Source: a virus. From it: DNA of 35,306 bases. This document shows, one piece after another, positions 9,954 through 32,956 of this stretch (positions are counted from its first letter, which is position 1; every line of letters starts with the position of its first letter). Both the position numbers and the translations under genes were made by a program. The stretch lies in the IMG/VR virus record IMGVR_UViG_3300037042_007690, positions 1 to 35,306 of that record; one strand, written 5' to 3'. The notes beneath the pieces were generated by a model. It saw only the letters and a list, made by a program, of their open reading frames with translations, made no database searches and had not been told where the DNA came from.

Positions 9954-11189
9954 TTAACTTAAGATCATAGTTCCATATGGGCCAAATGCTTTTGTTCCAT
10001 AAAAAATATCAATCCGCATAACGTCTTGGTCAGTTTGAATGTCATAAACAATATTAACGCGCATAGAAATATTGCTATCTTCGTCAGTAAATACTTTAGA
10101 ATATGCCGCACCCGATGAAATTGGGCCAGGGACACAAGCTAAAGTAAATGCTTCTCGAGAATAAACAAAATTTTTAATATATTGCGTAGCAGTACCTGGA
10201 GTAGTAATGCCAGAACATGAAACTGCAGCATTTAAAGCAGGAGCATTAGTTACATTTTGATAAGGACCAGTTAAAATTATTGGCGGAAGAATTGTTACAA
10301 CCGCATTTCCCGATGCATCAGAATTAACAACACTTTGAACATTAAATTGTGCAAGATTTTCAGATCCGTAACCAACTTGTGAACGATTTTGAGGATTAAC
10401 ACCAAAAACATTAGCAAATGTAATAATGTCTCCAGCATTTAAAACATTAGATTGGCTTGCTGTAAATCCAGTTAAATTTACAGTTGATGATCCATCAACG
10501 ACTGCCGTTGCAACGTTTGGAGTTCCTGGAAAAGTTCCTGTTGTATGAATTTGTAAATTTTGATCTTCAAGAAGATCATGAGAACCTAACGATCCAATTA
10601 TTGCACGTTGACTAACGTCTTTATTAAAAGCTTCGTTAAAAGAATTTTGTAAACTAGCGCGCAATGTTCCTGCAGGGTCCGGATGAAACGCCATATAAGC
10701 CGATTGACGAACACCATATTTTCTTTGTGTTGTAATAGCCATGTTAGGAACAGCAAAGCTAGTAACGCCGGCACCAGGAGTTCCAACAGCTCGATTAAAC
10801 TCAAGAGTGCCTGCAATACCTATTTGCGTATCTAAAATATTTGCAAGCGCTTGAGCCGCACCTTCGTATATATTGGTTTCAGGATCTTGTAAAAAACGTT
10901 GAGTTTCAACCGATGTAAATGCAACATCAACGTGTTGTTGAAATTGTATTGTTAAATAAGTTTGGTTTTCAACAACTGCTTGTACAGCTAAAGCAGCGCC
11001 AGAAGTTACTGTAAAATAAACGGGTTTACGAATTCGAACCGTGCTGCCAATTTTGTAAGCATTTTCTGAACCAAAATCGCCTTCATAATCTCTGTTTGCG
11101 GTATGAGTTAATCCTAAACTATTTACTAAACGAGCAAGTACATTGCGGCCTACAAAATCAACGTATAAAAATTGGTTGGTGGTAGTCAT
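9954..11189 (-). CDS. Major capsid (coat) protein, P22 gp5-like (411 aa)
   Basis: This is the probable HK97-fold major coat protein of the P22 gp5 type. Support comes from its position directly after the scaffold-like gene, its length of 411 residues (P22 gp5 is 430), and its N-terminal region. That region has a long helix (NVLARLVNSLGL), a YEGDFG loop, a G-x-V-R-I-R-KP strand and an ALANILDTQIG spine helix, as in P22-type coats. Two Ala/Thr/Val-rich beta stretches (about 215-330) may be an insertion domain. The start has GGAAGGAA upstream. The strong terminator just downstream agrees with very high expression. No protease gene is seen, consistent with an uncleaved coat. Confidence 0.85.
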   Translation of the reverse strand: MTTTNQFLYVDFVGRNVLARLVNSLGLTHTANRDYEGDFGSENAYKIGSTVRIRKPVYFTVTSGAALAVQAVVENQTYLTIQFQQHVDVAFTSVETQRFLQDPETNIYEGAAQALANILDTQIGIAGTLEFNRAVGTPGAGVTSFAVPNMAITTQRKYGVRQSAYMAFHPDPAGTLRASLQNSFNEAFNKDVSQRAIIGSLGSHDLLEDQNLQIHTTGTFPGTPNVATAVVDGSSTVNLTGFTASQSNVLNAGDIITFANVFGVNPQNRSQVGYGSENLAQFNVQSVVNSDASGNAVVTILPPIILTGPYQNVTNAPALNAAVSCSGITTPGTATQYIKNFVYSREAFTLACVPGPISSGAAYSKVFTDEDSNISMRVNIVYDIQTDQDVMRIDIFYGTKAFGPYGTMILS

Positions 11190-11238
11190 TTATATTTCCT
11201 TCCTTGGAAATACGTCAATTTATTTAAATTTTAAAAAC

Positions 11239-12336
11239 TTACATATTTTGACGCATTTTTTCCTTTATTCGTGCATTAAATTCACGTTGAGATAAAGAAG
11301 AAGCATCTTTTGGAACCGATTGAGCTTTACGAGCTCCTGACGAATGTTTTTGCTGAATTGGCGCTGGCGCTTTTGAAACAACGTTAGGTCTCATAACCAA
11401 TTCCATTTCAGCTTCCATTTTACCCAGTTCTACCAGTGCTTTAATTGGATTCATTGACAAAAATTCTTTCTGTAATTCAAGATCTTTGCAAATTCCATAT
11501 AACAAATGAGGCGCATATTTGCTTTGTTTAATAGCCTGCCCTAATTGCGGCTGATATTGATCAATTAACTCCAATTTTGATCGTGTAACAATATTATTAA
11601 AATCTTTATAAATATTTTCTTCCTGAACATTTTTAAGATTTTTAACAAAATCATCATCAGTTTTCTGATTTTCTAAAAATAATTTTTGTTGCTTTTTCCA
11701 AAAATTAAGTGCTTGTCCTTTACCTGTCCAAAAATTACGAACTGCTTCAAAATATTGCGGCATGTTTTGCCCAAAATTTTCAGCCCTCGGCATTTCAACA
11801 ATTTCTTGTGTGTTCGGATCAACATATTTATCATCATTGACCGTAGGAACGTTTTCAGGAAATTCAAGCGACTCTCTTTCCTGCAATTCTTTTAATTTTA
11901 GCTTTAATTCTTGAATTTCATCATGTGCATTATGTAATTTAGCAGTAACTTTGTTAATTTTCCGTTCTGCGTAATTTTTTACACCTTTTTGAATTTCAGG
12001 AACTTTATTATCTTCTTCAATTAATTGAGTTTCTTCAATTTCTTTATCAAGTTGCTCAATTTCTTGATCAGATAAATCAGAATTTTTTTCATTTGATACG
12101 TTTCCACTTTCTACACTAAAAGAACTTTCATCGTTTCCAGAAGATGCCTCATCATTCTTATCATGAATAATGCGGTTAATTTGCTCTTCCGGCTTTTTTA
12201 AAAGCTCGGGTTCGGATTGAATTTTATTCCGCGAAACAACAGCATCAAATTTTTCTTGATTCTGTATTCCGCCGACTCCAGTAATTCGATCCATTTTTGA
12301 TTGAATTTTTGCTTCAATCTCTTCCTTGCTTAACAT
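11239..12336 (-). CDS. Scaffolding protein (365 aa)
   Basis: This is the first gene of the late leftward operon, with AAGGAG 8 bases before the ATG. The protein is acidic and almost entirely helical or coiled coil. It has Glu/Asp-rich segments at about 75-110 (EQLDKEIEETQLIEEDNK), a coiled coil at about 130-160 and a short basic C-terminal tail (residues about 330-365, including REFNARIKEKMRQ). A basic C-terminal helix that grips the coat is the known arrangement in P22 scaffolding protein. The position immediately before the coat gene supports the same role. It has no signal peptide or enzyme motif. Confidence 0.75.
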   Translation of the reverse strand: MLSKEEIEAKIQSKMDRITGVGGIQNQEKFDAVVSRNKIQSEPELLKKPEEQINRIIHDKNDEASSGNDESSFSVESGNVSNEKNSDLSDQEIEQLDKEIEETQLIEEDNKVPEIQKGVKNYAERKINKVTAKLHNAHDEIQELKLKLKELQERESLEFPENVPTVNDDKYVDPNTQEIVEMPRAENFGQNMPQYFEAVRNFWTGKGQALNFWKKQQKLFLENQKTDDDFVKNLKNVQEENIYKDFNNIVTRSKLELIDQYQPQLGQAIKQSKYAPHLLYGICKDLELQKEFLSMNPIKALVELGKMEAEMELVMRPNVVSKAPAPIQQKHSSGARKAQSVPKDASSLSQREFNARIKEKMRQNM

Positions 12337-12778: not shown

Positions 12779-12816
12779 GTAAAACAATGTTTGACAAGTA
12801 AAACAATGTATGACAT
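12779..12816 (+). repeat. Two 19-bp tandem repeats over the early promoter
   Basis: Two direct copies (12779-12797 and 12798-12816) match at 17 of 19 positions, with shared core TAAAACAATGT followed by a TGACA. The first copy contains the -35 hexamer and the second covers the spacer and start of the -10. Adjacent identical sites at this position look like a tandem operator for a repressor or activator. The HTH protein encoded at 13352-13567 is a candidate ligand. Confidence 0.6.
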
Positions 12817-12819
12817 AAT
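12791..12819 (+). promoter_or_regulatory. Strong early rightward promoter
   Basis: TTGACA (12791-12796), a 17-base spacer and CATAAT (12814-12819) form a near-consensus sigma70 promoter. Transcription would start near 12826, about 45 bases before the first early gene at 12872. The 12681-12778 interval upstream is AT-rich and holds the start of the divergent zinc-ribbon gene; I see no clear second promoter there. Confidence 0.8.
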
Positions 12820-12871: not shown

Positions 12872-12988
12872 ATGGAATCATTATCAGAGCAATTAGAAAA
12901 CAGCAACATTGAAGAAAAATATTATGAAAATAAATATAAAGAATACGATGAACAAATGTGGAAAATAATTAATAATGAAGAAATATGA
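12872..12988 (+). CDS. Small acidic early protein (38 aa)
   Basis: ATG at 12872 has AGAAAGGA at good distance and is the first frame after the strong early promoter. The product (starts MESLSEQLENSN, ends KIINNEEI) is acidic, rich in Glu, Asn and Tyr, and predicted helical. It has no recognised family. Its last 14 bases overlap the start of the next gene. A first-position, highly expressed, acidic micro-protein is typical of phage host-takeover or anti-defence proteins, but that is only an inference. Confidence 0.65.
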   Translation: MESLSEQLENSNIEEKYYENKYKEYDEQMWKIINNEEI

Positions 12989-13328
12989 ATTAACAAATCA
13001 GGTATTTGAATTTAATGGTAAAACGTTATTCAGGATCCGAGCATTACGAGATTTTGGTGATGTGAAATGCGGAGATTTTGGTGATGTGAAATGCGGAGAT
13101 TTTGGCGGATGGTTGCAGTTTGAAAATAATCTGAGCCATGAAGGCGAAAGCTGGGTTTTTGGTAAAGCAAAAGTTTATGACAATGCAAAAGTTTTTGGTA
13201 ATGCGCAAGTTTATGAGAATGCAAGAGTTTATGGTAATGCAATAGTTTTTAGTGATGCATGGGTTTTTGGTAATGCAAAAGTTTATGGTGATGCGGAAGT
13301 TTATGAAAATGTAAAAGTTTTTAATTAA
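12975..13328 (+). CDS. Beta-helix repeat protein of unknown function (117 aa)
   Basis: Residues about 58-115 are consecutive six-residue repeats of the form V-[YF]-[GDE]-[ND]-A-x (VYDNAK, VFGNAQ, VYENAR, VYGNAI, VFGNAK). These predict a left-handed beta-helix like hexapeptide-transferase proteins. The N-terminal part (LFRIRALRDFGDVK, GGWLQ, NLSHEGESWV) is shared with a family common in phages and bacteria and lacking a known function. An exact 24-bp tandem duplication adds eight residues (FGDVKCGD twice). No acetyltransferase residues are evident. It sits in the early operon just ahead of the HTH gene and the pentapeptide-repeat genes, which are another beta-helical fold. Confidence 0.75.
   Translation: MKKYELTNQVFEFNGKTLFRIRALRDFGDVKCGDFGDVKCGDFGGWLQFENNLSHEGESWVFGKAKVYDNAKVFGNAQVYENARVYGNAIVFSDAWVFGNAKVYGDAEVYENVKVFN
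13050..13097 (+). repeat. Exact 24-bp tandem duplication inside the beta-helix gene
   Basis: Units 13050-13073 and 13074-13097 are identical and in frame, duplicating eight residues. Perfect identity in a coding region indicates a recent slippage or recombination event. Confidence 0.9.
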
Positions 13329-13351: not shown

Positions 13352-13567
13352 ATGAATCATTTAATAAATAAAGAATTTATAAAAAATTTTAGAATTAACA
13401 TGTTAAAAATTACACAAAAAGAATTTGCTAAACAATTTGGGGTTTGCAAAGGATGTGTTTCTTCTTGGGAAAGAGGTCAAAGAAATCCAAGCAAATCCGC
13501 CATTATTTTATTAAAAAAAATAATTAATGATTATTATAAAAATTTATCTAAGGATATTTTTAAATGA
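13352..13567 (+). CDS. XRE/Cro-C1-type HTH regulator (71 aa)
   Basis: This is a short DNA-binding protein. Residues about 20-60 give the XRE helix-turn-helix pattern: ITQKEFAKQFGV, then CKGCVSSWERGQRNPS as turn and recognition helix, then a third helix (SAIILLKKIIND). There is no oligomerisation or cleavage domain, so it is Cro-sized rather than a full CI repressor. AAGG precedes the start. Its last four bases overlap the next start (ATGA). It is in the operon driven by the early promoter that carries two 19-bp repeats, so autoregulation there is a reasonable hypothesis. Pentapeptide genes follow directly and share its 3' junction sequence. Confidence 0.8.
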   Translation: MNHLINKEFIKNFRINMLKITQKEFAKQFGVCKGCVSSWERGQRNPSKSAIILLKKIINDYYKNLSKDIFK

Positions 13568-13977
13568 AAGACAGATTTGGAAACAAACTAACACTTGAAG
13601 ACATTAAGCCGGGGGCAGATTTGGTCGGAGCAAACTTGCAAAAAGCAAACTTGAGTAAAGTGAACTTGTGCGGAGCAAATTTGTGCTTTGCAAACTTGGC
13701 CTATGCAGACTTAAGTGGCGCAGATTTGAGTGGAGCAAACTTGCGCGGAGCAAAATTAATCAGCGCATCTTTGATCGATTCGATTTTGATCGCAACTGTT
13801 TTGAGCGGGACTTGCTTGATCGCAGCTGTCTTGCGAAAAGCCGACTTGACCCGAGCAGACTTGAGCGACGCAGACTTGAGATGGGCAGACTTAAGAAGGG
13901 CAGACTTTAGCAATGCAAACTTGCGCAACGCGAACTTTATGGGCGCAATTTATAAAAATTGGAATATGATTATATGA
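13564..13977 (+). CDS. Pentapeptide-repeat protein 1 (137 aa)
   Basis: After a 16-residue cap (MKDRFGNKLTLEDIKP) the protein is about 22 consecutive A[DN]Lxx pentapeptides to residue about 128, predicting a right-handed quadrilateral beta-helix of five to six coils. In the middle (about 60-90) the rule weakens, with I/V/C at inner positions (LIATVLSGTCLIAAVL), which could be a kink or a dimer surface. Related proteins (Qnr, MfpA) mimic DNA and act on gyrase, but no such role is shown here. Many Asp/Asn on one face would fit mimicry. It is the first of four tandem paralogues, and its stop overlaps the next start (ATGA). Confidence 0.85.
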   Translation: MKDRFGNKLTLEDIKPGADLVGANLQKANLSKVNLCGANLCFANLAYADLSGADLSGANLRGAKLISASLIDSILIATVLSGTCLIAAVLRKADLTRADLSDADLRWADLRRADFSNANLRNANFMGAIYKNWNMII

Positions 13978-14690
13978 AAGATAGATTTGGAAACAAACTA
14001 ACACGTGCAAACATTAAACCCGGTGCAGACTTAAGCGGCGCAGACTTAAGCGGCGCAGACTTAAGCGGTGCAGACTTAAACCGTGCAGACTTAAGAGGAG
14101 CAAATTTAAGCGAAGCACAATTGCGTAAAGCGGACCTTAGTAATGCAGATTTAACGGGCGCAAACTTGAGTGCGTCATATTTGATTGATGCAATATTGAT
14201 CGATGCAAACTTGATCAGGGCAAACTTGAAAATAGCGTACTTGATCGATGCAAACTTGATCAAAGCAAACTTGAGCGGAGCAAATTTAAGCGAAGCAAAC
14301 TTAAGTGGAGCAAAATTGAGTTGGGCAAAATTAATCGTAGCAGACTTGACCAGCGCAAATTTAAGTGAGGCAAAATTAATCGGAGCTAACTTGCACGAAG
14401 CAAAATTAAGATTTGCAAATTTTTTCAATGCAAACTTAAGAGGTGCAGACTTAAGCTGCGCAGACTTGAGCGATGCTGACTTGAGTGATGCAGATTTAAG
14501 CAGAACGAACTTATTCGGCGTAAAATTTTGCAGAGCAAATTTGAGCGACGCAGACTTGAGATTTGCAAACTTGAGATTTGCAGACTTGATGGGGGCAAAC
14601 TTTAGCGGTGCAAACTTTATGGACGCAATTTATGAAAATGGGGATATTTTTAAATGTATGAAAATGGGGATATTTTTAAATGAAAGATAG
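13974..14690 (+). CDS. Pentapeptide-repeat protein 2 (238 aa)
   Basis: The start at 13974 is chosen because the sequence MKDRFGNKLT matches the caps of the neighbouring paralogues. An in-frame ATG at 13959 would add five residues. About 42 pentapeptides run from about residue 17 to 225, opening with perfect GADLS copies and containing an Ile-rich stretch in the middle (LIDAILIDANLIRANL). The C-terminus is odd: an exact 26-bp tandem duplication has displaced the original stop and added 11 residues (CMKMGIFLNER). Before the event the gene would have ended ...GDIFK with an ATGA overlap, as at the other junctions. Predicted cytoplasmic, beta-helical; DNA-mimic role possible but unproven. Confidence 0.85.
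   Translation: MKDRFGNKLTRANIKPGADLSGADLSGADLSGADLNRADLRGANLSEAQLRKADLSNADLTGANLSASYLIDAILIDANLIRANLKIAYLIDANLIKANLSGANLSEANLSGAKLSWAKLIVADLTSANLSEAKLIGANLHEAKLRFANFFNANLRGADLSCADLSDADLSDADLSRTNLFGVKFCRANLSDADLRFANLRFADLMGANFSGANFMDAIYENGDIFKCMKMGIFLNER
14631..14682 (+). repeat. Exact 26-bp tandem duplication spanning a start codon
   Basis: Units 14631-14656 and 14657-14682 are identical. Each contains GGGGATATTTTTAAATG, the ribosome site and ATG of pentapeptide gene 3. Since 26 is not divisible by three, the upstream ATG (14654) opens only a nine-codon frame, and pentapeptide gene 2 is extended at its end. Confidence 0.95.
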
Positions 14691-15453
14691 ATTTGGAAAA
14701 GAACTAACACTTGAAGACATTAAGCCACTCGCAGACTTGAGTGAGGCAGACTTAAGCGGCGCAGACTTAAGCGGCGCAGACTTAAGCGGCGCAGACTTAA
14801 GCGGTGCAGACTTAAACCGTGCAGACTTAAGAGGCGCAAATTTAAGCGAAGCACAATTGCGTAAAGCGGACCTTAGTAATGCAGATTTAACCGGCGCGAA
14901 CTTTAGTAAGGCAGACTTAAGCGAAGCAAACTTGAGCGGAGCAAATTTAAGCGAAGCAGACTTGAGTGGATCGAATTTGAAAAAAGCAAACTTGAAAGAA
15001 GCAATCTTAATCAAAGCAAACTGTGTTAAAACATATTTGCGCGAAGCAAACTTAAACGGCGCGGATTTGAGCAAAGCGAGTTTTATAAAGGCAAACTTAA
15101 TCAGTGTAAGTTTAATCGAATCAAACTTAAGGTTTTCCTGCTTGACAAATGCAGATTTTAGCAAAGCAAATTTGAGCGGAGCGGTCTTAAGCGGAGCAAA
15201 TTTGTTCATGTCAAATTTTAACGGAGCGGTCTTGAGCGGAGCAAATTTAAGCGAAGCCACATTGAACTATGCAAAATTGATAAAAGTAAACTTAACCTAT
15301 GCAGATTTAATCGGAGCAAGCTTGAGAGGAGCAAATTTAAGCGAAGCAATCTTAATAAAAGCGAATTTTACCGGGGCAATCTTAACCGACACAAACTTTA
15401 ATAATGCATATTTAACGAACGCAATTTTTAAAAATATAAACTTTAAAAATTAA
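14680..15453 (+). CDS. Pentapeptide-repeat protein 3 (257 aa)
   Basis: This is the longest of the four paralogues. The cap is MKDRFGKELTLEDIKP, followed by about 46 A[DN]Lxx units, of which the first five are near-perfect ADLSG copies. This gives roughly 11-12 predicted coils. The 5' end, including GGATATTTTTAAATG, matches that of pentapeptide gene 1, while the segment at about 14752-14900 is nearly identical to one in gene 2. The gene is therefore a mosaic of its neighbours. Ser, Asn and Lys interruptions occur in the second half. The start overlaps the end of gene 2 by 11 bases. The family is certain; the target is unknown. Confidence 0.85.
   Translation: MKDRFGKELTLEDIKPLADLSEADLSGADLSGADLSGADLSGADLNRADLRGANLSEAQLRKADLSNADLTGANFSKADLSEANLSGANLSEADLSGSNLKKANLKEAILIKANCVKTYLREANLNGADLSKASFIKANLISVSLIESNLRFSCLTNADFSKANLSGAVLSGANLFMSNFNGAVLSGANLSEATLNYAKLIKVNLTYADLIGASLRGANLSEAILIKANFTGAILTDTNFNNAYLTNAIFKNINFKN
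14752..14900 (+). repeat. Block nearly identical to 14030-14163 in the preceding paralogue
   Basis: About 130 bases of pentapeptide gene 3 match gene 2 with only about three or four substitutions (for example AGGAG versus AGGCG, ACGGGCG versus ACCGGCG), plus one or two extra 15-base repeat units. Flanking parts of the two genes are far more diverged. This points to recent gene conversion or unequal recombination. Confidence 0.8.
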
Positions 15454-15470
15454 TAATATTAAGAAAACAA

Positions 15471-15977
15471 ATGATGAAAGACAAAAACGGAAAGCTTTTA
15501 AAAATAAGCGATATTAAACCGAATGCAAATTTGAGCTTTGCAAACTTGAGCGGCGCAGATCTAACTGGAGTAAATTTAACCGGGGCAAATTTGGAAGGTG
15601 CAATTTTTATTCACGCAAATTTAAATGATGCGAATTTATTAGATGCTTATTTAAAATATTCAGACTTACGTTGTGCTTTATTAAATAAAACAAATTTTGA
15701 AGGCTGTAATTTAATTCGTTCAAATTTAACAACAACATATGGATATAAAACAATTTTTAAAAATGCAAATTTAAGCAATGCTGAAGTTATTTTTTCTAAT
15801 TTAAATAAAGCAAATTTTGATGAATCAAAATTAAATTATACGAATTTTATGTATTCTGACTTAAAAAATACAACATTTAAAAATTCAATTTTAATTAAAA
15901 CAAATTTAAATTTTACAAATTTAAGCTATGCAAATTTTACTAACGCATGTATATTGGATGTTGAATTATATAGATAA
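15471..15977 (+). CDS. Pentapeptide-repeat protein 4, diverged (168 aa)
   Basis: The cap (MKDKNGKLLKISDIKP) is related to those of the three upstream paralogues. Residues about 18-160 are pentapeptides with more F/Y/C and irregular positions (NLTTTYGYKTIF). Unlike genes 1-3 it uses the AT-rich codons of the rest of the phage (AAT, TTA, GCA AAT TTA), so it appears older or resident. ATG at 15474 is an equally good start and aligns better with the paralogues. It is separated from gene 3 by 17 bases and followed by SSB. Confidence 0.8.
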   Translation: MMKDKNGKLLKISDIKPNANLSFANLSGADLTGVNLTGANLEGAIFIHANLNDANLLDAYLKYSDLRCALLNKTNFEGCNLIRSNLTTTYGYKTIFKNANLSNAEVIFSNLNKANFDESKLNYTNFMYSDLKNTTFKNSILIKTNLNFTNLSYANFTNACILDVELYR

Positions 15978-16028: not shown

Positions 16029-16472
16029 ATGACGCAAAGTATTAATAAAATTATTTTAATTGGTAGAGTTGGTGCAGAAGTTGATTTAAAAATGACAACA
16101 TCTGGTGATTCAGTTGCAACAATTAATTTAGCTACAAGTGAATCTTGGAAAGATAAAGTAAGTGGCGAAAAAAAAGAACAAACAATGTGGCATAGAATTA
16201 TTTTTTATAAAAAATTAGCAGATCTTGCATACACTTATTTAAAAAAAGGTTCTTTATGCTATATCGAAGGCTCTTTAAAATATCGAAAATATAAAGATAA
16301 AAATAATGAAGAAAAATCAATTAGTGAAATATTATGTAATGAATTTAAAATACTGAGTTCAAAATCTCAAAATAATGAATTAATTCTTGATGATCAAGAA
16401 AAATTAGCAATGAAACCAAGCATCATTGTTAATGATAATAATTCAAATTTTGATGACGACATACCTTTTTAA
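16029..16472 (+). CDS. ssb: Single-stranded DNA-binding protein (147 aa)
   Basis: It coats ssDNA during phage replication and recombination. Residues 1-110 show the bacterial SSB OB-fold pattern: NKIILIGRVGAEVDLK, the strand pair ATINLATSESW, MWHRIIFYKKLADLAYTYLKKG and YIEGSLKYRKY. The C-terminus is a classic acidic tip, DDDIPF, which recruits partner proteins. The linker is short, so the protein is smaller than E. coli SSB (178). AAAGGA lies upstream of ATG. As last gene of the pentapeptide operon it links that array to DNA metabolism; it would work with the RecT-like annealase and YqaJ exonuclease encoded at 20-22 kb. Confidence 0.92.
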   Translation: MTQSINKIILIGRVGAEVDLKMTTSGDSVATINLATSESWKDKVSGEKKEQTMWHRIIFYKKLADLAYTYLKKGSLCYIEGSLKYRKYKDKNNEEKSISEILCNEFKILSSKSQNNELILDDQEKLAMKPSIIVNDNNSNFDDDIPF

Positions 16473-22602: not shown

Positions 22603-22778
22603 AAAGAATCAAAAATATCAAATTTTGTTGCAAGAAAATAATTCAATTCGTTATAATCAGTTATATTTTCTTTTTCTATAAAATTTTTTAATAAATCACC
22701 AAGTATTTGCAAATGCACTTCGGTTACATTTTCGTCATTTATTTTAATATTAGTATAAGTAGTTAATAAATTGGTCAT
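22599..22778 (-). CDS. Small acidic protein coupled to the recombinase (59 aa)
   Basis: ATG at 22778 overlaps the recombinase stop (ATGA), with AAGGAAAA upstream. The product begins MTNLLTTYTNIKIND and ends KFDIFDSL; it is acidic, helical and has no cysteine or membrane helix. Tight coupling indicates that it is made with the recombinase and may be its accessory or control protein, which is inference. Confidence 0.65.
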   Translation of the reverse strand: MTNLLTTYTNIKINDENVTEVHLQILGDLLKNFIEKENITDYNELNYFLATKFDIFDSL

Positions 22779-23332
22779 AAATTTTCCTTAAGTTTTTTAT
22801 AAAAAGTAACATGTGAAATTCCAGATAATGAAGCAGCTTCAAAACAATTTACTTCTTTTAAATTATACATTTTAATAGCAAGATTTAATTTTTTAGGATC
22901 TACTTTTTTAACAGGACGACCACCAAAACGGCCTCTTGCTCGCGCCGCTTCTCTTCCTGCATTACTTCGTTCAATTAATGTTTCTCGTTCAGTTTGGGCA
23001 AGAAGAGACATCATATGATAAAAAAACTCACCCATTTTAGTTGAGGTATCAATATTTTCGGTTAAACTGATAAAATGGATGTTTTTATTTTTTAGGGTTT
23101 CTAATAAAATTACACGATCTTTTATAGATCGACCAATTCGATCCAGTTTCCACACAACAATTTTATCGCCCGGACGGACAATATCTAATAATAAATTAAG
23201 CTGCTCCCGATCTAAATTCTTTCCACTTTTTTTTTCTTCAAAAATTCGTTCGCAACCATATTTTGTTAAAGCATCGATTTGAAGATCTAATTTTTGTTCT
23301 ATGGTTGAAACTCTTGCGTAGCCTATTATCAT
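22775..23332 (-). CDS. Serine recombinase, resolvase/invertase family (185 aa)
   Basis: This is a small serine recombinase like Hin, Gin and Tn3 resolvase. The catalytic domain has YARVSTIEQ (Ser9, Arg7), KLDRIGRS (Arg65, Arg68), LTENIDTST, then MGEFFYHMMSLLAQTERE and the E-helix into R-x-G-R-x2-GRP (GRFGGRPVKK). Residues about 143-185 are the HTH DNA-binding domain (FEAASLSGISHVTFYKK). Length is normal, so it is not a large integrase. It could invert or resolve a phage segment, or resolve multimers of the circular genome. It has no ribosome site of its own and appears coupled to an 11-codon leader. Confidence 0.9.
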   Translation of the reverse strand: MIIGYARVSTIEQKLDLQIDALTKYGCERIFEEKKSGKNLDREQLNLLLDIVRPGDKIVVWKLDRIGRSIKDRVILLETLKNKNIHFISLTENIDTSTKMGEFFYHMMSLLAQTERETLIERSNAGREAARARGRFGGRPVKKVDPKKLNLAIKMYNLKEVNCFEAASLSGISHVTFYKKLKENL

Positions 23333-25591: not shown

Positions 25592-25627
25592 AATAAATAG
25601 AAATTTTAATGCAAATCAAGGATGATA

Positions 25628-27061
25628 ATGCAAGAATTTGATCAATATATTGCAACTTATACTGCGACAGAATTTCATCTTGATAAATCCCCAATTAGAG
25701 CGCTTATGGGGCCGGTTGGCTGTGGAAAATCAGTAGCTTGCTGCATGGAAATATTTCGAATTATGTGCTCTCAAGAGCCTGGGAAGGATGGATTTAGAAG
25801 AACAAAAGCAGTTTGCATTAGAAATACTTACCCGGAATTAGTTACTACTACTATAAAAACTTGGAAAATGTTATTTCCAACACCTCAAACGGGGCGGGTC
25901 GTTCATGGATCGCCAACAATTCATTATTTTGAATGGCAAGATATTCGCGCAGAAGTGATTTTTATGTCTTTAGGGTGCCTTGACGACATTAAAAAATTAA
26001 AATCTTTAGAATGTACAGTTGTTTGGTTAAATGAATGCCAATTCTTATTTAGAGAAGCTATTGATATTGCTTTAGAACGAGCAAAACGCTACCCTCCAAA
26101 ATCACACAGTTTAGCAACTCAAAATGGCGTTATTTTAGATACCAACCCACCCGACAGCAATCATTGGTTTTTTAAATTGTTTGAACTAGAAAACCCAAAA
26201 GGCTATAAATTATTTAAATATGAGCCGGCAATTATAAAAATAAATGGAGAATGGAAGGCTAATCCAGAAGCCGATTATCCAAAAAATCTTGGTGAAGGAT
26301 ATGATTATTATTTAAGCCAAATTGAAGGAAAAACAGATGAATATATAAAAGTAATGTTTCAAGGCCAATACGGATCTTGTTATTCTGGGCGACATGTTTA
26401 TCCTGAATATAATGATTCATTACATTATGACGAATCTTTAAAAGCAAATCCTGAATTGCCTTTAATTTTAGGAATGGATTTTGGATTAACGCCTGCGGTT
26501 GTTATTGCTCAATATAATTCTTTGGGACAACTTTTTATTATCGATGAAATAACAACAGATTACATGGGGCTTACTAATTTTTTAACAGACATTGTTATTC
26601 CTCATTTTGCCACTTATTATTCAAATTTTCAAATAGAAACAACAATTGGCGATCCTGCAGGATCGCAAGGAAGTCAACAATTAACCGAAAAAACAACTTG
26701 TTTTACGGTTCTTGCTGATCATGGATTTACTGCACGACAAGCTAAAACAAATAAATTTTGGCCTAGAAAAGAAGCAGTTTCAAGAAGGCTTGGAATATTA
26801 GTTGCAAAAGGATTGCCGGCATTAGTAATAGGGCCAAAAGCACAAAAAATAAGAAGTGGTTTTTTAGGAGGTTATCATTTTAAAGAAATAAATTCAACTT
26901 CATTTGGTGAAACGCAATACAAAGAAGAAGCAAATAAAAACCAGTATTCGCATCCACATGACGCTTTGCAATATATTTGTCTTTATAAAGAAAGTTTTAA
27001 AACGGAAAAAATAGATAATAAAAAAGAAAAAGAAATTATGAGAAAACTTGGATATATTTAA
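25628..27061 (+). CDS. Terminase large subunit (477 aa)
   Basis: This is the packaging ATPase and nuclease. Walker A is GPVGCGKS (about 28-35), Walker B VVWLNE (about 131-136). The RNase H-like nuclease domain begins GMDFGLTPA (Asp284), continues with FIIDE (about 306) and TIGDPAGSQGSQ (Asp342), and ends HPHDALQY. ATG at 25628 is preferred because AAGGA lies five bases away; the ATG at 25622 is directly against it. Length is as expected for P22-like headful terminases. The portal gene follows. Confidence 0.92.
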   Translation: MQEFDQYIATYTATEFHLDKSPIRALMGPVGCGKSVACCMEIFRIMCSQEPGKDGFRRTKAVCIRNTYPELVTTTIKTWKMLFPTPQTGRVVHGSPTIHYFEWQDIRAEVIFMSLGCLDDIKKLKSLECTVVWLNECQFLFREAIDIALERAKRYPPKSHSLATQNGVILDTNPPDSNHWFFKLFELENPKGYKLFKYEPAIIKINGEWKANPEADYPKNLGEGYDYYLSQIEGKTDEYIKVMFQGQYGSCYSGRHVYPEYNDSLHYDESLKANPELPLILGMDFGLTPAVVIAQYNSLGQLFIIDEITTDYMGLTNFLTDIVIPHFATYYSNFQIETTIGDPAGSQGSQQLTEKTTCFTVLADHGFTARQAKTNKFWPRKEAVSRRLGILVAKGLPALVIGPKAQKIRSGFLGGYHFKEINSTSFGETQYKEEANKNQYSHPHDALQYICLYKESFKTEKIDNKKEKEIMRKLGYI

Positions 27062-27079
27062 CTACAAAAGGAAATTGTT

Positions 27080-29296
27080 ATGGGAATTACTTCAGAACTT
27101 ATTGGTTTGGCGCCTGATGAATCAGTAAAATTTTCAAATTTAGATGATCAACAAAAAATTGCAACAATGGTATCTCGAGTAAATGATTTTTTTCAATTTT
27201 TTGAAATTAATATTAGATCTGGAAAAGAAGATTACGATTTTTTAATGCAAGAAAACCAACAATGGGATCCAGAACTTTTGTCTGCTCGACAAAATTCAAA
27301 ACAACCTACTTTTCAAATTAATTATATTTATTCAATTGTTACTTCTTTATTAGGAAAAATTAGACAAAATACCCCTGAATTTAAAATTTATAGCGATGTT
27401 GACGAAAGTAATGCAAAAGTAAAAATTGATCAAGAGGGAATAGATATTAGAGAAAATTATTTACGTCAAATTTCATATGAAAATAATGCGCCAATTCAAT
27501 ATCAAATGTGCGCTGAAAATCAATTGGGACGTGGATATGGAGCCCTTTCAATTTATCTTGAATATGAAAATGAATTTTCTTTTAAACAAAAAATAAAAAT
27601 TAAATCTATAGATCCCTCCTGGTGTTTTTGGGACACAAGCGATAATTCCCTTTGTAAAACAGATTCAAGATATTACGGTTATCTTGAACAATTTACTTAT
27701 GAAGAATTTAAAGAAAATTGGCCCGATTCAAAATCAGTTAAAAATAAAAATAAACCTTCTTCTTTTCCATCCATGACATTATCAAAAAATATGGATTATT
27801 TATGGCAAGGTGAAGATTATATTTCAATTTGTAATTATTTTGTTAAAGAATCTCACCCAATTATTTTATATCAAATGAATAATGGAATTGGGATGACTTT
27901 AACTCAAGCAGAAAAAGAAATTGAAATTGATCGACAAAAAAGAAAAAAAGCAAAAGTTGCAGAAAATTTAATTAAAAAAACAATTATGAAAATAAGCGGT
28001 AAAAAACAAAATCAAGAATTTTCTTTAGAAAAAATATTGCCATTAGATTTTGCTTATGATGATAAAGGAAAAAAAATAACAAGAAATTCATTAGAATACA
28101 AAATAATACATTATGTCGCAACAAAAACAGAAATTTTAGAACAATCAGAATGGCCAAGTCATTTAAATGGTTTAATTTTTGTTGACGGCCATTCCTGGTG
28201 GAAAGACGGACAACAATATACAAAATCTTTTCACAAAACTGCCAAAGATCCCCAGCGTATTGCTAATATGATGATGAGTGAATCGGTTGGAAATTTAATT
28301 AATTCCCATAAAAGTCAATGGCTTGGAACACCTGAAAATTTTAATGGCTATGAACATATTTGGAGAGATCCATCAATTCCAAAAGGAGCATTAATTGCTA
28401 AAAGAGATGAAATGGGACAAATGCCTATACAAATACAACCTCCTCAAATTTCGCCAAATTATGCCCCTTTAATTACTCAATCTATTTCAGATATTCAAAA
28501 TTGCATGGGATTTGTTAATCCTTCTCAAAAAGAATCCGATTCTGAAATAAGCGGAAAAGCATATAACTCAAGAGTTAGACAAAGTGAATTATCCAGTTTT
28601 ATTTATTTAGATAATTTATCAGAAGCAATTGCTCAAGCTAATAAAGTAATGCTTTCATTAATGCCTTTTATTCTTGATACAAAACAATCAATTATGGTTA
28701 GAGATAAAAATAACCAACAAAGAATAGAAGATATTAATGTCCCCACCGCTGACGGAATTAAAAATGATATGACGGCAGGAAAATTTAATGTTGAAGTAAC
28801 AATTGGAAATGATTACCAAACTCAAAAAAGCGAAAATTTAGATCAATTGTTACAATTAACAAGTATAATTGCTCCAATTAACCCTCCAGCTGCATCTTTA
28901 ATGATGGATCTAATTGCAGCCAATACTAATTTAACTAATACCCCACAAATTGTTGATCGACTTAGAGCGGCAATGCTTGGAATGAATCCATCAGATATTT
29001 TAAAACATGAAATGGGAATTCCTGCTCAAAAACAACAACAACAAAATGGCCCAGATCCTGCCCAAATGCAAATAGAAATTCAAAAAATGCAACTTCAAAA
29101 TGAATCTGAAAAAATAAAAGTAGAACAACAAAAAATTCAAATGGAATCCCAAAAACTTCAAGTTGAACATGAAAAAAATTTAATTGACCGGCAAAAATCA
29201 TTGGATGCAGTTAAAATGAAAGAACTTGAAGTTAAAAGAGAAGAAATTGCAGCTAATGCTGAAATAAGCAAAAATTTAGTTGTTCAAAAAGAATAA
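27080..29296 (+). CDS. P22 gp1-like portal protein (738 aa)
   Basis: This is the dodecameric portal at the capsid vertex. Residues 30-110 (FEINIRSGKEDYDFLM, QWDPELLSAR, FQINYIYSIVTSLLGKIR, NTPEFKIY) match the P22-like portal family, and P22 gp1 is 725 residues. The C-terminal residues about 645-738 are a long Gln/Lys/Glu coiled coil, corresponding to the P22 barrel, with highly repetitive IQKMQLQ, VEQQKIQ and ESQKLQV segments. AAAGGAAA precedes the ATG. Unlike in P22, the scaffold and coat genes do not follow: they are on the other strand. Confidence 0.92.
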   Translation: MGITSELIGLAPDESVKFSNLDDQQKIATMVSRVNDFFQFFEINIRSGKEDYDFLMQENQQWDPELLSARQNSKQPTFQINYIYSIVTSLLGKIRQNTPEFKIYSDVDESNAKVKIDQEGIDIRENYLRQISYENNAPIQYQMCAENQLGRGYGALSIYLEYENEFSFKQKIKIKSIDPSWCFWDTSDNSLCKTDSRYYGYLEQFTYEEFKENWPDSKSVKNKNKPSSFPSMTLSKNMDYLWQGEDYISICNYFVKESHPIILYQMNNGIGMTLTQAEKEIEIDRQKRKKAKVAENLIKKTIMKISGKKQNQEFSLEKILPLDFAYDDKGKKITRNSLEYKIIHYVATKTEILEQSEWPSHLNGLIFVDGHSWWKDGQQYTKSFHKTAKDPQRIANMMMSESVGNLINSHKSQWLGTPENFNGYEHIWRDPSIPKGALIAKRDEMGQMPIQIQPPQISPNYAPLITQSISDIQNCMGFVNPSQKESDSEISGKAYNSRVRQSELSSFIYLDNLSEAIAQANKVMLSLMPFILDTKQSIMVRDKNNQQRIEDINVPTADGIKNDMTAGKFNVEVTIGNDYQTQKSENLDQLLQLTSIIAPINPPAASLMMDLIAANTNLTNTPQIVDRLRAAMLGMNPSDILKHEMGIPAQKQQQQNGPDPAQMQIEIQKMQLQNESEKIKVEQQKIQMESQKLQVEHEKNLIDRQKSLDAVKMKELEVKREEIAANAEISKNLVVQKE

Positions 29297-30715: not shown

Positions 30716-32956
30716 TTAAACTGATGTAAATGCTGGAACGGAAATTCCAGTTAAAAATATACTTGGAACGCAAACATCACATAAAATAAAAACATTGTTT
30801 TCTACAATGCATTTTAATGAAAATTTAGTCCCATAAATTTTATTTTTTAAAGATCCGCCTGTTCCATTTGTAGTATATTGATCGCCTCCTAAATAAATTT
30901 TTTGCGAAGCATTTTGATGAACAATTAAATTTTTTGCCAATGCGTTATAATCAAGCGTGTTTATAATATGCACCGTATCTCCAGGTTTTGCTGAAGTTGG
31001 AAGTAATAAATCTGCATCAAAATCACCATTAAAATAATAAGTTTGATTTACTTGCATTTGAACTTGTGTATCACTTGAAACTAAATTCATTGTTGATAGC
31101 CAAGGTGTTGGGCCGCCATCAATAACCGAACCTGCATTATCAAATTTTGCATAACTTCCATCAGAAAAACTGGAAAGCATTACAGCGTTTGTTTTGCTTG
31201 CGTCAGTAACACCAACAACAGCTGCCGCGCCTAAACCAAGATTTGTTCTGCTAGTAGATATATTATTTAAATCAGATAAATTATTAATTGCAGTTAAACA
31301 ACCCGCAGCTGGGTTACCGCCACCATCAACAAGGGACCCTTTGCTATCAAATTTTGGGTAATTACCGTTTGTAAAACTTGATAACATTACAACATTTGCT
31401 TTTGCAAGATCAGTAACTCCTTTAAGTGCCGAAGCGCCTAAACCAAGATTAAGACGACTTGTTGTAATAGATTCAAGGTCTGAAAGATTATTAGTTGAAA
31501 CTAAACAACCCGCAGCTGGGTCTCCACCACCATCAACAAGGGAACCTTTGTTATCAAATTTTGCGTAATTACCGTTTGTAAAGCTTGATAGCATTACGGC
31601 ATTTGTTTTGCTTGTATCAGTAACACCAACAATTGCCGCTTCTCCTAAACCTATATTTGTTCTGCTTATGGCTATATCTTCTACATCTGAAAGATTATTA
31701 GATGAAAGAAGAGCCCCAGCAGGAGTACTTCCACCATCAATTAACGAACCTTTGCTATCAAATTTTGCATAATTACCGCTTGTAAAGCTTGAAAGCATTA
31801 CCGCATTTGTTTTAGTTGTATCCGTTACATTAACAACAGCGGCTTCTCCTAACCCAATATTTTCTCTTGCATTTGCTCTATTTGAAACATCTGCAAGATT
31901 ATTAGATGCAATTAAACATCCTAACGCGGGATTGCCACCACCATCAACCAATGATCCTTGGCTATCAAATTTTGCATAATTTCCAGAAGTAAATGTTGAT
32001 AACATAACTGCCGTTGTTTTTGTATTATCCGTAACATTTTTTAATGCGGCATCAGATAATTCTAAATTAAGTCGACTGGTTGCTATATCATCAACATCTG
32101 AAAGATTATTTGATGCAATTAATGTTCCGGCCGGATCCGCACCGCCATCAATTAAAGAACCATTATCATCAAATTTTGCATAAGATCCACTTGTAAAACT
32201 AGAAAGCATGACAGCTTTTGCTTTTGTTTGATCAGTAATATCTTTTAAAGCCGCTTTACCTAAACCTAAATTATCTCGAGCCGTTGAAATGTTATTTAAA
32301 TCTGATAAATTATCAACTTGTAATAAAGCGCCAGAAAGTCCTCTAGCATCTAATTTTCCATCTTCAGTAAAATATAAATTGTCACCAACAAAAATTTCTT
32401 CAATATTGTGAGAAATTTGTTTTGAATTTCCAAGTAATGAAATTGGACTGCTTTTTTTAATTAATGAATAATTAATTGAATTTTCATTAATAGAAGTAAC
32501 ACCTAAATGCGAAGTAACTTGTGGCCCAATTAAATCACCGCAATGTCCGGTTACACTAATCGGCCACGTTCCTGTTGCATTTGATCCGGAAAGAGAAGGA
32601 GATGATATTGCGTTTCTAATATTTGCACCGCTGGATGCATTAAGTATTGAATAACCAAGATCGGTAAAAGGAATTTCTGATGAAGGGCCAATACTTCCAT
32701 CCAATAACCCTAAAAATCTATTGTTATTAGAAATTGTAGGTTTTTGAATAAGCCATCGGCCAATTCCTGAAGTTGGTTCAATAACAGTAATATTATCAGC
32801 AGTAGCTGAAGAACTATTGTTATAATAAAAATTTCCAAGACCTGGAATATTACAAGTAATTCCATTTACTGCCCCTGAAACATCAAATGCCGCAAGAGAA
32901 GAAGCGCTTGAAAGTGGCGGAACAATTGTAGTTTTTGATAATAAAACATTTCCCAT
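30716..32956 (-). CDS. Long tail fibre protein with six NNLSD repeats (746 aa)
   Basis: This is a receptor-binding or side-fibre protein. The N-terminus (NGITC, LGNFYYN, ITVIEPTSGIGRWL) is the same attachment module as in the 365-residue fibre. Residues about 205-615 are six tandem repeats of about 69 residues, each opening with NNLSD(V/L), then ...R.N.GLG..A, VTD..K, AVMLSSFTSG, YAKFD and ending GSLVDGG. NLSD..A.ARxNLGL repeats are well known in long phage fibre shafts. The C-terminal 120 residues (LLPTSAKPGDTVHIIN) form a beta tip. DNA repeats of about 207 bases make it prone to length change by recombination. Confidence 0.82.
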   Translation of the reverse strand: MGNVLLSKTTIVPPLSSASSLAAFDVSGAVNGITCNIPGLGNFYYNNSSSATADNITVIEPTSGIGRWLIQKPTISNNNRFLGLLDGSIGPSSEIPFTDLGYSILNASSGANIRNAISSPSLSGSNATGTWPISVTGHCGDLIGPQVTSHLGVTSINENSINYSLIKKSSPISLLGNSKQISHNIEEIFVGDNLYFTEDGKLDARGLSGALLQVDNLSDLNNISTARDNLGLGKAALKDITDQTKAKAVMLSSFTSGSYAKFDDNGSLIDGGADPAGTLIASNNLSDVDDIATSRLNLELSDAALKNVTDNTKTTAVMLSTFTSGNYAKFDSQGSLVDGGGNPALGCLIASNNLADVSNRANARENIGLGEAAVVNVTDTTKTNAVMLSSFTSGNYAKFDSKGSLIDGGSTPAGALLSSNNLSDVEDIAISRTNIGLGEAAIVGVTDTSKTNAVMLSSFTNGNYAKFDNKGSLVDGGGDPAAGCLVSTNNLSDLESITTSRLNLGLGASALKGVTDLAKANVVMLSSFTNGNYPKFDSKGSLVDGGGNPAAGCLTAINNLSDLNNISTSRTNLGLGAAAVVGVTDASKTNAVMLSSFSDGSYAKFDNAGSVIDGGPTPWLSTMNLVSSDTQVQMQVNQTYYFNGDFDADLLLPTSAKPGDTVHIINTLDYNALAKNLIVHQNASQKIYLGGDQYTTNGTGGSLKNKIYGTKFSLKCIVENNVFILCDVCVPSIFLTGISVPAFTSV
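31110..32335 (-). repeat. Six tandem repeats of about 207 bp in the long fibre gene
   Basis: Each unit contains an AAATTTTGC(A/G)TAA word (near 31140, 31350, 31556, 31760, 31967 and 32170) and encodes one 69-residue shaft repeat. Neighbouring units are close in sequence, especially those between 31330 and 31960. Confidence 0.8.

What the first reader, a model, noticed from the sequence alone, without database searches (positions are those of the whole stretch)
13564..15977. Array of four tandem pentapeptide-repeat proteins in the phage early operon
Four adjacent genes (137, 238, 257 and about 167 residues) share a cap of the form MKDRFGNKLTxEDIKP and otherwise consist almost only of A[DN]Lxx pentapeptides. 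They lie between an HTH regulator and SSB, downstream of a strong early promoter. Pentapeptide proteins such as MfpA and Qnr are known DNA mimics that bind gyrase. A paralogous array in a lytic-looking phage could make a set of DNA mimics of different length against gyrase, nucleases or restriction systems. The array and paralogy are seen; the function is inference.
Basis: partly seen in the sequence, partly recalled or inferred. Interest (0 to 1): 0.85.

Follow-up and report, generated by a model that had tools for sequence, protein, structure and literature searches.

The report
Tandem pentapeptide-repeat gene array in phage
An environmental virus that infects bacteria carries four neighbouring genes for rod-shaped 'pentapeptide-repeat' proteins, at least three of which arose by copying and reshuffling; such arrays recur in unrelated phages and probably help the phage take over or disarm its host, but nothing in the sequence shows that they imitate DNA or bind gyrase.

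Summary
Four adjacent genes (137, 238, 257 and 167/168 aa) at 13564-15977 are pentapeptide-repeat (PF00805) proteins with a shared 16-residue N-terminal cap, in a P22-like podovirus, between an HTH gene and SSB. AlphaFold gives confident right-handed quadrilateral beta-helices for genes 2 and 4 (pLDDT 93 and 97). Genes 1-3 are recent, mosaic duplicates; gene 4 is much more diverged. The junctions HTH-1, 1-2 and 2-3 overlap, so translation is probably coupled.

The proposed function, a set of DNA mimics against gyrase, is not supported. Net charges are +3, -3, -3 and +3. No Qnr/MfpA family cut-off is met. No confident C-terminal dimer helix is seen in the two models. Compared with 104 other phage pentapeptide proteins these four lie on the neutral side.

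Tandem, cap-sharing arrays occur in ten other viral contigs, the clearest with five genes (L294). Single phage pentapeptide genes can sit in early recombination/anti-nuclease modules (P22-like ST64T orf-232 beside ral; Listeria phages near a host-nuclease inhibitor, Gam, Sak4, SSB).

Best reading: accessory early host-takeover or counter-defence solenoids, diversified by repeat recombination. The target is unknown.

The parts
12791..12819 (+). Candidate operon promoter, TTGACA-N17-CATAAT with extended -10 TG
   Evidence: Best site of the region, 11 of 12; about 5% chance in a 310-base shuffled leader
12872..12988 (+). Small leader ORF, 38 aa, with AGAAAGG upstream
   Evidence: Read from the sequence
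12975..13328 (+). YdcK-type beta-solenoid repeat protein, 117 aa; a second, unrelated solenoid class in the same operon
   Evidence: PF18836 E 8.5e-09; phrog_5070 E 5.3e-42
13352..13567 (+). HTH_3 regulator, 71 aa; its stop overlaps the start of gene 1 by 4 nt (ATGA)
   Evidence: PF01381 E 2e-07; sequence
13564..13977 (+). Gene 1 (P1): pentapeptide-repeat protein, 137 aa, net charge +3
   Evidence: PF00805 E 4.9e-40; charge
13974..14690 (+). Gene 2 (P2): pentapeptide-repeat protein, 238 aa, net charge -3; AlphaFold pLDDT 93.3
   Evidence: PF00805 E 6.4e-61; model
14680..15453 (+). Gene 3 (P3): pentapeptide-repeat protein, 257 aa, net charge -3
   Evidence: PF00805 E 8.2e-96; charge
15474..15977 (+). 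Gene 4 (P4): diverged pentapeptide-repeat protein, 167 aa from the MKD start, net charge +3; AlphaFold pLDDT 97.2
   Evidence: PF00805 E 1.4e-32; model; GC3 0.15
14025..14167 (+). Block of 143 nt in P2 shared with P3 14761-14903, 3 differences, all synonymous, register-shifted by two pentapeptides
14761..14903 (+). P3 partner of the 143-nt shared block
14627..14678 (+). 26-nt direct duplication (14627-14652 and 14653-14678, 96%) at the P2/P3 junction; it accompanies a longer P2 tail and an 11-nt P2/P3 overlap
   Evidence: sequence
16029..16472 (+). Single-strand DNA-binding protein downstream of the array
   Evidence: PF00436 E 5e-30

Best explanation
The locus is an accessory array of four right-handed quadrilateral beta-helix (pentapeptide-repeat) proteins in the early regulator/SSB operon of a P22-like podovirus. 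The small N-terminal cap is kept while the number of coils and the outward residues vary. The copies arose by tandem duplication and were reshuffled by recombination between 15-nt repeats. The gene overlaps allow translational coupling, so the proteins are probably made together early in infection. I infer that they bind host proteins, most likely enzymes that act on DNA or defend against phage, as part of host takeover or counter-defence; changing the length and surface would let one scaffold meet different targets. Shown: genes, fold (genes 2 and 4), paralogy, mosaic structure, overlaps, recurrence of such arrays in other phages. Inferred: early expression, host-protein binding, counter-defence role.
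For: PF00805 in all four; confident beta-helix models of P2 and P4. ATGA overlaps HTH-P1 and P1-P2 and an 11-nt overlap P2-P3. Mosaic relationships: cap P1-P3 95% over 59 nt, P2-P3 repeats 96.7% over 151 nt at a 30-nt shift, 3' end P1-P2 78% over 115 nt. Accessory: 0 of 44 terminase-relative records carry PF00805. Recurrence: cap-sharing arrays in L021, L042, L054, L057, L212, L213, L219, L271, L283 and L294. L294 has five genes, all 4-nt overlaps, near-identical 5' ends, 3' 54 nt 100% identical in four of five, middles 70-86%. Context: L271 ERF - three pentapeptide genes - YqaJ exonuclease; ST64T orf-232 beside ral and near erf/abc1/abc2; Listeria phage LP-HM00113468 near host nuclease inhibitor, Gam, Sak4 and SSB; here SSB adjacent and RecT/YqaJ-type genes in the same record.
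Against: No phage pentapeptide protein with a tested counter-defence function was found in the paper searches. In one published test the pentapeptide proteins McbG and QnrB did not relieve BREX (PMC7261183). PADLOC shows nothing for the array, which is uninformative for counter-defence. The context argument rests on a handful of loci, not on a statistical test. Early expression is inferred from position and one promoter-like site.
Confidence: 0.45

Rival explanations
1. DNA-mimic gyrase or topoisomerase modulators of the Qnr/MfpA type: the solenoids occupy the DNA-binding saddle of host gyrase and shift supercoiling in favour of the phage.
For: Same fold class: Foldseek matches to QnrB1 (E 7.5e-09), MfpA (2.1e-08) and AlbG (5.0e-07). 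Phages are known to encode gyrase inhibitors, Gip and Igy, though these are not pentapeptide proteins (PMC10886550).
Against: Best structural matches are designed solenoids, HetL and NP275-276, not gyrase binders. Net charges +3 to -3. Qnr and MfpA cut-offs missed: at most 82 of 240 and 70 of 360 bits. No confident C-terminal helix in the P2 and P4 models.
Confidence: 0.15
2. Auxiliary factors of the phage's own replication/recombination (scaffolds or clamps for SSB, RecT or the exonuclease) rather than host-directed proteins.
For: Array next to SSB here; L271 array between ERF and YqaJ exonuclease; Listeria phages near Gam, Sak4, helicase and SSB.
Against: 0 of 44 terminase relatives have the family. 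Array size and surface vary widely, which is unusual for a replication partner. Accessory genes often cluster in such modules without sharing their function.
Confidence: 0.15
3. Largely neutral repeat expansion: 15-nt repeats duplicate and shuffle easily, soluble beta-helices are tolerated, and the array has no strong function.
For: 26-nt junction duplication and recent P2/P3 homogenisation. Phages L and ST64T differ by one 15-bp repeat unit in orf232, the reading frame being kept (PMC8022706).
Against: All four frames are open over about 800 codons with clean repeats; gene 4 has the phage's own codon use, which suggests long residence, yet models at pLDDT 97. The three differences in the newest P2/P3 block are all synonymous (few events). 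Arrays recur in other contigs with different caps.
Confidence: 0.15
4. A lysogenic-conversion or envelope-directed role (superinfection exclusion or host-surface change).
For: ST64T orf-232 lies beside gene 17, annotated as superinfection exclusion.
Against: No signal peptide or hydrophobic segment is apparent by eye in the four sequences; position with HTH and SSB points to intracellular early genes.
Confidence: 0.05

Closest known systems
orf-232 / orf232 of the P22-like phages ST64T and L
   Same: Pentapeptide-repeat gene in the early operon of a P22-like phage, beside ral and near erf, abc1, abc2; repeat number varies by one 15-bp unit between L and ST64T (PMC8022706).
   Different: A single gene, with a different cap (LxxILxxHxxW type) and a non-repeat C-terminal part; the window has four genes, a different cap and no C-terminal domain.
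Five-gene array in viral contig IMGVR_UViG_3300035130_000222 (L294)
   Same: Tandem pentapeptide genes with a shared cap, length variation and 4-nt overlaps, in an AT-rich (28% G+C in the locus) contig.
   Different: Different cap (MKKLTQAEIDxKLKNDDKDW), conserved 3' ends, acidic proteins (net -2 to -21).
Qnr / MfpA / AlbG gyrase-binding pentapeptide proteins
   Same: Right-handed quadrilateral beta-helix made of pentapeptides.
   Different: Qnr and MfpA family cut-offs not met; near-neutral charge; no confident dimerisation helix in the models; the window's repeats are more regular.
HetL, NP275-276 and designed 'beta1' pentapeptide solenoids
   Same: Closest solved structures by sequence and fold: regular, mostly uninterrupted helices.
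   Different: Cyanobacterial or designed; no phage context. HetL cut-off not met (164 of 260 bits).
Phage gyrase inhibitors Gip and Igy
   Different: About 50-aa peptides, not pentapeptide-repeat proteins.

Membership tests
Pentapeptide repeat proteins (Pfam PF00805) | Score over the curated cut-off with tandem A(D/N)LXX pentapeptides | tested here: met
   135, 202, 313 and 111 bits against a cut-off of 20.2
Pentapeptide repeat proteins (Pfam PF00805) | Right-handed quadrilateral beta-helix | tested here: met
   AlphaFold pLDDT 93.3 (P2) and 97.2 (P4); Foldseek matches to solved pentapeptide proteins. P1 and P3 not modelled.
Qnr (NF033086) | Score over the NCBIfam cut-off (240 bits) | tested here: not met
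   40, 71, 82 and 41 bits
MfpA (NF000349) | Score over the NCBIfam cut-off (360 bits) | tested here: not met
   34, 68, 70 and 27 bits
Qnr / MfpA | C-terminal helix used for dimerisation | tested here: inconclusive
   None in P4; only H224-229 at low confidence in P2; P1 and P3 not modelled; monomer models cannot show dimers
DNA mimics | Strongly acidic surface laid out like the phosphates of B-DNA | tested here: inconclusive
   Net charge +3, -3, -3, +3, outward repeat positions mixed; the first coils of P3 are acidic; no electrostatic map could be computed; QnrB19 itself is only -6
Gyrase-binding pentapeptide proteins | Binding to or effect on DNA gyrase | not testable with these tools
   Needs biochemistry
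HetL (NF047416) | Score over the NCBIfam cut-off (260 bits) | tested here: not met
   At most 164 bits
Alr5209 family (NF052603) | Score over the NCBIfam cut-off (125 bits) | tested here: inconclusive
   P2 151 and P3 173 pass only by summing several repeat stretches of a 113-position model; P1 108 and P4 73 do not

The most novel reading that the evidence does not exclude
Phage pentapeptide arrays are recombination-driven repertoires: constant ends (cap, and in L294 also the C-terminal end) flank a shuffled middle, so a phage lineage keeps making solenoids of new length and surface against changing host targets, in the way other systems diversify binding proteins.
Probability: 0.22. Interest if true: 0.68.

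Novelty: new variant of a known kind. Interest (0 to 1): 0.42.

Why it matters
Pentapeptide proteins are common in phages (409 GenBank phage records match gene 2), and the papers found describe none with a tested function in phage infection. Arrays that keep the cap and vary the middle give a tractable way in: the paralogues are natural variants of one scaffold, and if they act on host defence or DNA enzymes the variable coils should point to the target.

Tried and rejected
Exact cap MK[DN]RFGxxLT in genomes of 84,980 species: 58 matches, none followed by pentapeptide repeats, so no bacterial source was found. Portal and coat protein searches of viral contigs found no relatives; the terminase alignment gave only distant ones. 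PADLOC found nothing for the array. Rfam and tRNA searches were empty. Plasmid DNA similarity gave only generic pentapeptide or ssb matches. The L329 'array' is a false positive of my repeat pattern (no pentapeptide cap or repeats in the sequence shown). Co-occurrence of the upstream YdcK-type solenoid with pentapeptide genes was tested: 1 of 18 records, so the two are not generally linked. A codon-use argument that genes 1-3 came recently from a G+C-richer source is possible, but repeat homogenisation could also preserve old codon use; left open.

Full report
What is there. The window is a whole linear IMG/VR virus record of 35,306 bases, 31% G+C. It encodes a P22-like portal (PF16510 E 2.6e-94), a P22-type coat protein, a terminase and a head-closure protein. 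The finding's four genes are real: 137, 238, 257 and 167/168 aa, at 13564-13977, 13974-14690, 14680-15453 and 15471-15977. All four score far over the Pfam pentapeptide cut-off, and a genome-wide scan places 25 pentapeptide matches in this array. Upstream lie a 38-aa ORF, a YdcK-type beta-solenoid protein and an HTH_3 regulator; downstream lies SSB.

Anatomy. Each protein is a 16-residue cap followed by pentapeptides: 23 of 27, 42 of 47, 48 of 51 and 27 of 33 quintets (cap included) have L or F at the centre. Structure prediction gives confident quadrilateral beta-helices for P2 (pLDDT 93.3) and P4 (97.2), each with the same small capped start; only the last residues of P2 are poorly modelled. 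P1 and P3 were not modelled. HTH and P1, and P1 and P2, overlap by 4 nt; P2 and P3 overlap by 11 nt next to a 26-nt duplication. The best promoter-like site of the region lies at 12791-12819, though about 5% of shuffled leaders contain one as good.

History of the array. P1-P3 are DNA-level paralogues, P4 is not. Different segments point to different closest pairs: P1 and P3 at the cap (95% over 59 nt), P2 and P3 in the repeats (96.7% over 151 nt, at a 30-nt shift), P1 and P2 at the 3' end (78% over 115 nt). In the cleanest 143-nt block P2 and P3 differ at three sites, all synonymous. This mosaic pattern fits duplication followed by recombination between repeats. Third-codon G+C is 0.39-0.49 in P1-P3 against 0.15 in P4 and 0.11-0.21 in the other genes of the phage that I measured: either P1-P3 came later from elsewhere, or repeat homogenisation kept old codons.

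Distribution. No close relative of this phage was found. The nearest terminases are about 43% identical, and none of 44 such records holds a pentapeptide match, so the array is accessory at that distance; many of those records are fragments. The exact cap followed by repeats was found in none of the 84,980 species genomes scanned, but its end, IKPGADL, recurs in other viral pentapeptide proteins. Cap-sharing tandem arrays were seen in ten other viral contigs: L021, L042, L054, L057, L212, L213, L219, L271, L283 and L294; L301 is a further possible pair. In a sample of 120 loci picked by the pattern ADLSGADLSGA, 7 had two or more adjacent pentapeptide genes, counting L301, and 2 of these had three or more, after removing one false call. 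L294 is the clearest: five genes with 4-nt overlaps, 5' 84 nt 89-100% identical, 3' 54 nt 100% identical in four of five, middles 70-86%.

Context. In contig L271 three pentapeptide genes lie between an ERF annealing protein and a YqaJ exonuclease. In P22-like ST64T a single pentapeptide gene, orf-232, overlaps ral, the antirestriction gene, near erf, abc1 and abc2; phage L has one 15-bp unit fewer (PMC8022706). In Listeria phage LP-HM00113468 the gene follows a host nuclease inhibitor and precedes a methyltransferase, Gam, Sak4 and SSB. These are selected examples, not a test.

Function. The DNA-mimic idea was checked as far as sequence allows. Net charges are +3, -3, -3, +3 and the outward positions carry both signs. 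Among 104 phage pentapeptide regions the median is -5.8 per 100 residues; the four here are +0.9, -3.0, -2.1 and -0.7. QnrB19 is -2.8 per 100 over its whole length, so charge alone cannot exclude gyrase binding. Qnr and MfpA cut-offs are not met. The best structural matches are designed solenoids and HetL, with QnrB1 and MfpA weaker. The literature searched gave no tested function for a phage pentapeptide protein; one review names two unrelated phage gyrase inhibitors (PMC10886550), one paper notes by HHPred a Listeria phage gene related to gyrase-inhibitor pentapeptide proteins (PMC12282133), and one shows McbG and QnrB do not relieve BREX (PMC7261183). From position, accessory nature and recurrence beside recombination and anti-nuclease genes I favour early host-takeover or counter-defence binding proteins, at 0.45.

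Verdict. Its fold reading is right and its DNA-mimic reading is unproven and not favoured. As phage pentapeptide genes go this is a known kind; the cap-keeping tandem array is an unusual arrangement for which the papers searched gave no description, and it turns out to recur.

Noticed in passing
12975-13328: A 117-aa YdcK-type beta-solenoid protein with an internal repeat of GDVKCGDF opens the same operon; relatives occur in 25 viral contigs and PHROGs 5070 and 7964 give no function. It is not generally linked to pentapeptide genes.
   Followed up: partly
9954-12336 and 25622-29296: Structural genes are split by strand: terminase and portal on +, coat and most other virion genes on -, unlike the contiguous portal-scaffold-coat order of ST64T.
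   Followed up: no
22775-23332: A 185-aa DNA-invertase-type serine recombinase (phrog_125 E 4.1e-66) in a phage without an identified integrase; it might invert a tail-fibre segment, not tested.
   Followed up: no
30716-32956: A 746-aa protein has several copies of a repeat like TDxTKTNAVMLSSFTSGNYAKFDSKGSLVDGG, probably a tail-fibre or similar virion protein.
   Followed up: no
L294:8884-11906: Five-gene pentapeptide array with identical 3' ends in four genes and near-identical caps, a better case than the window for studying diversification.
   Followed up: partly
L050 and L051: Long open frames in two viral contigs join IKPGADL-type pentapeptide repeats to extra domains.
   Followed up: no
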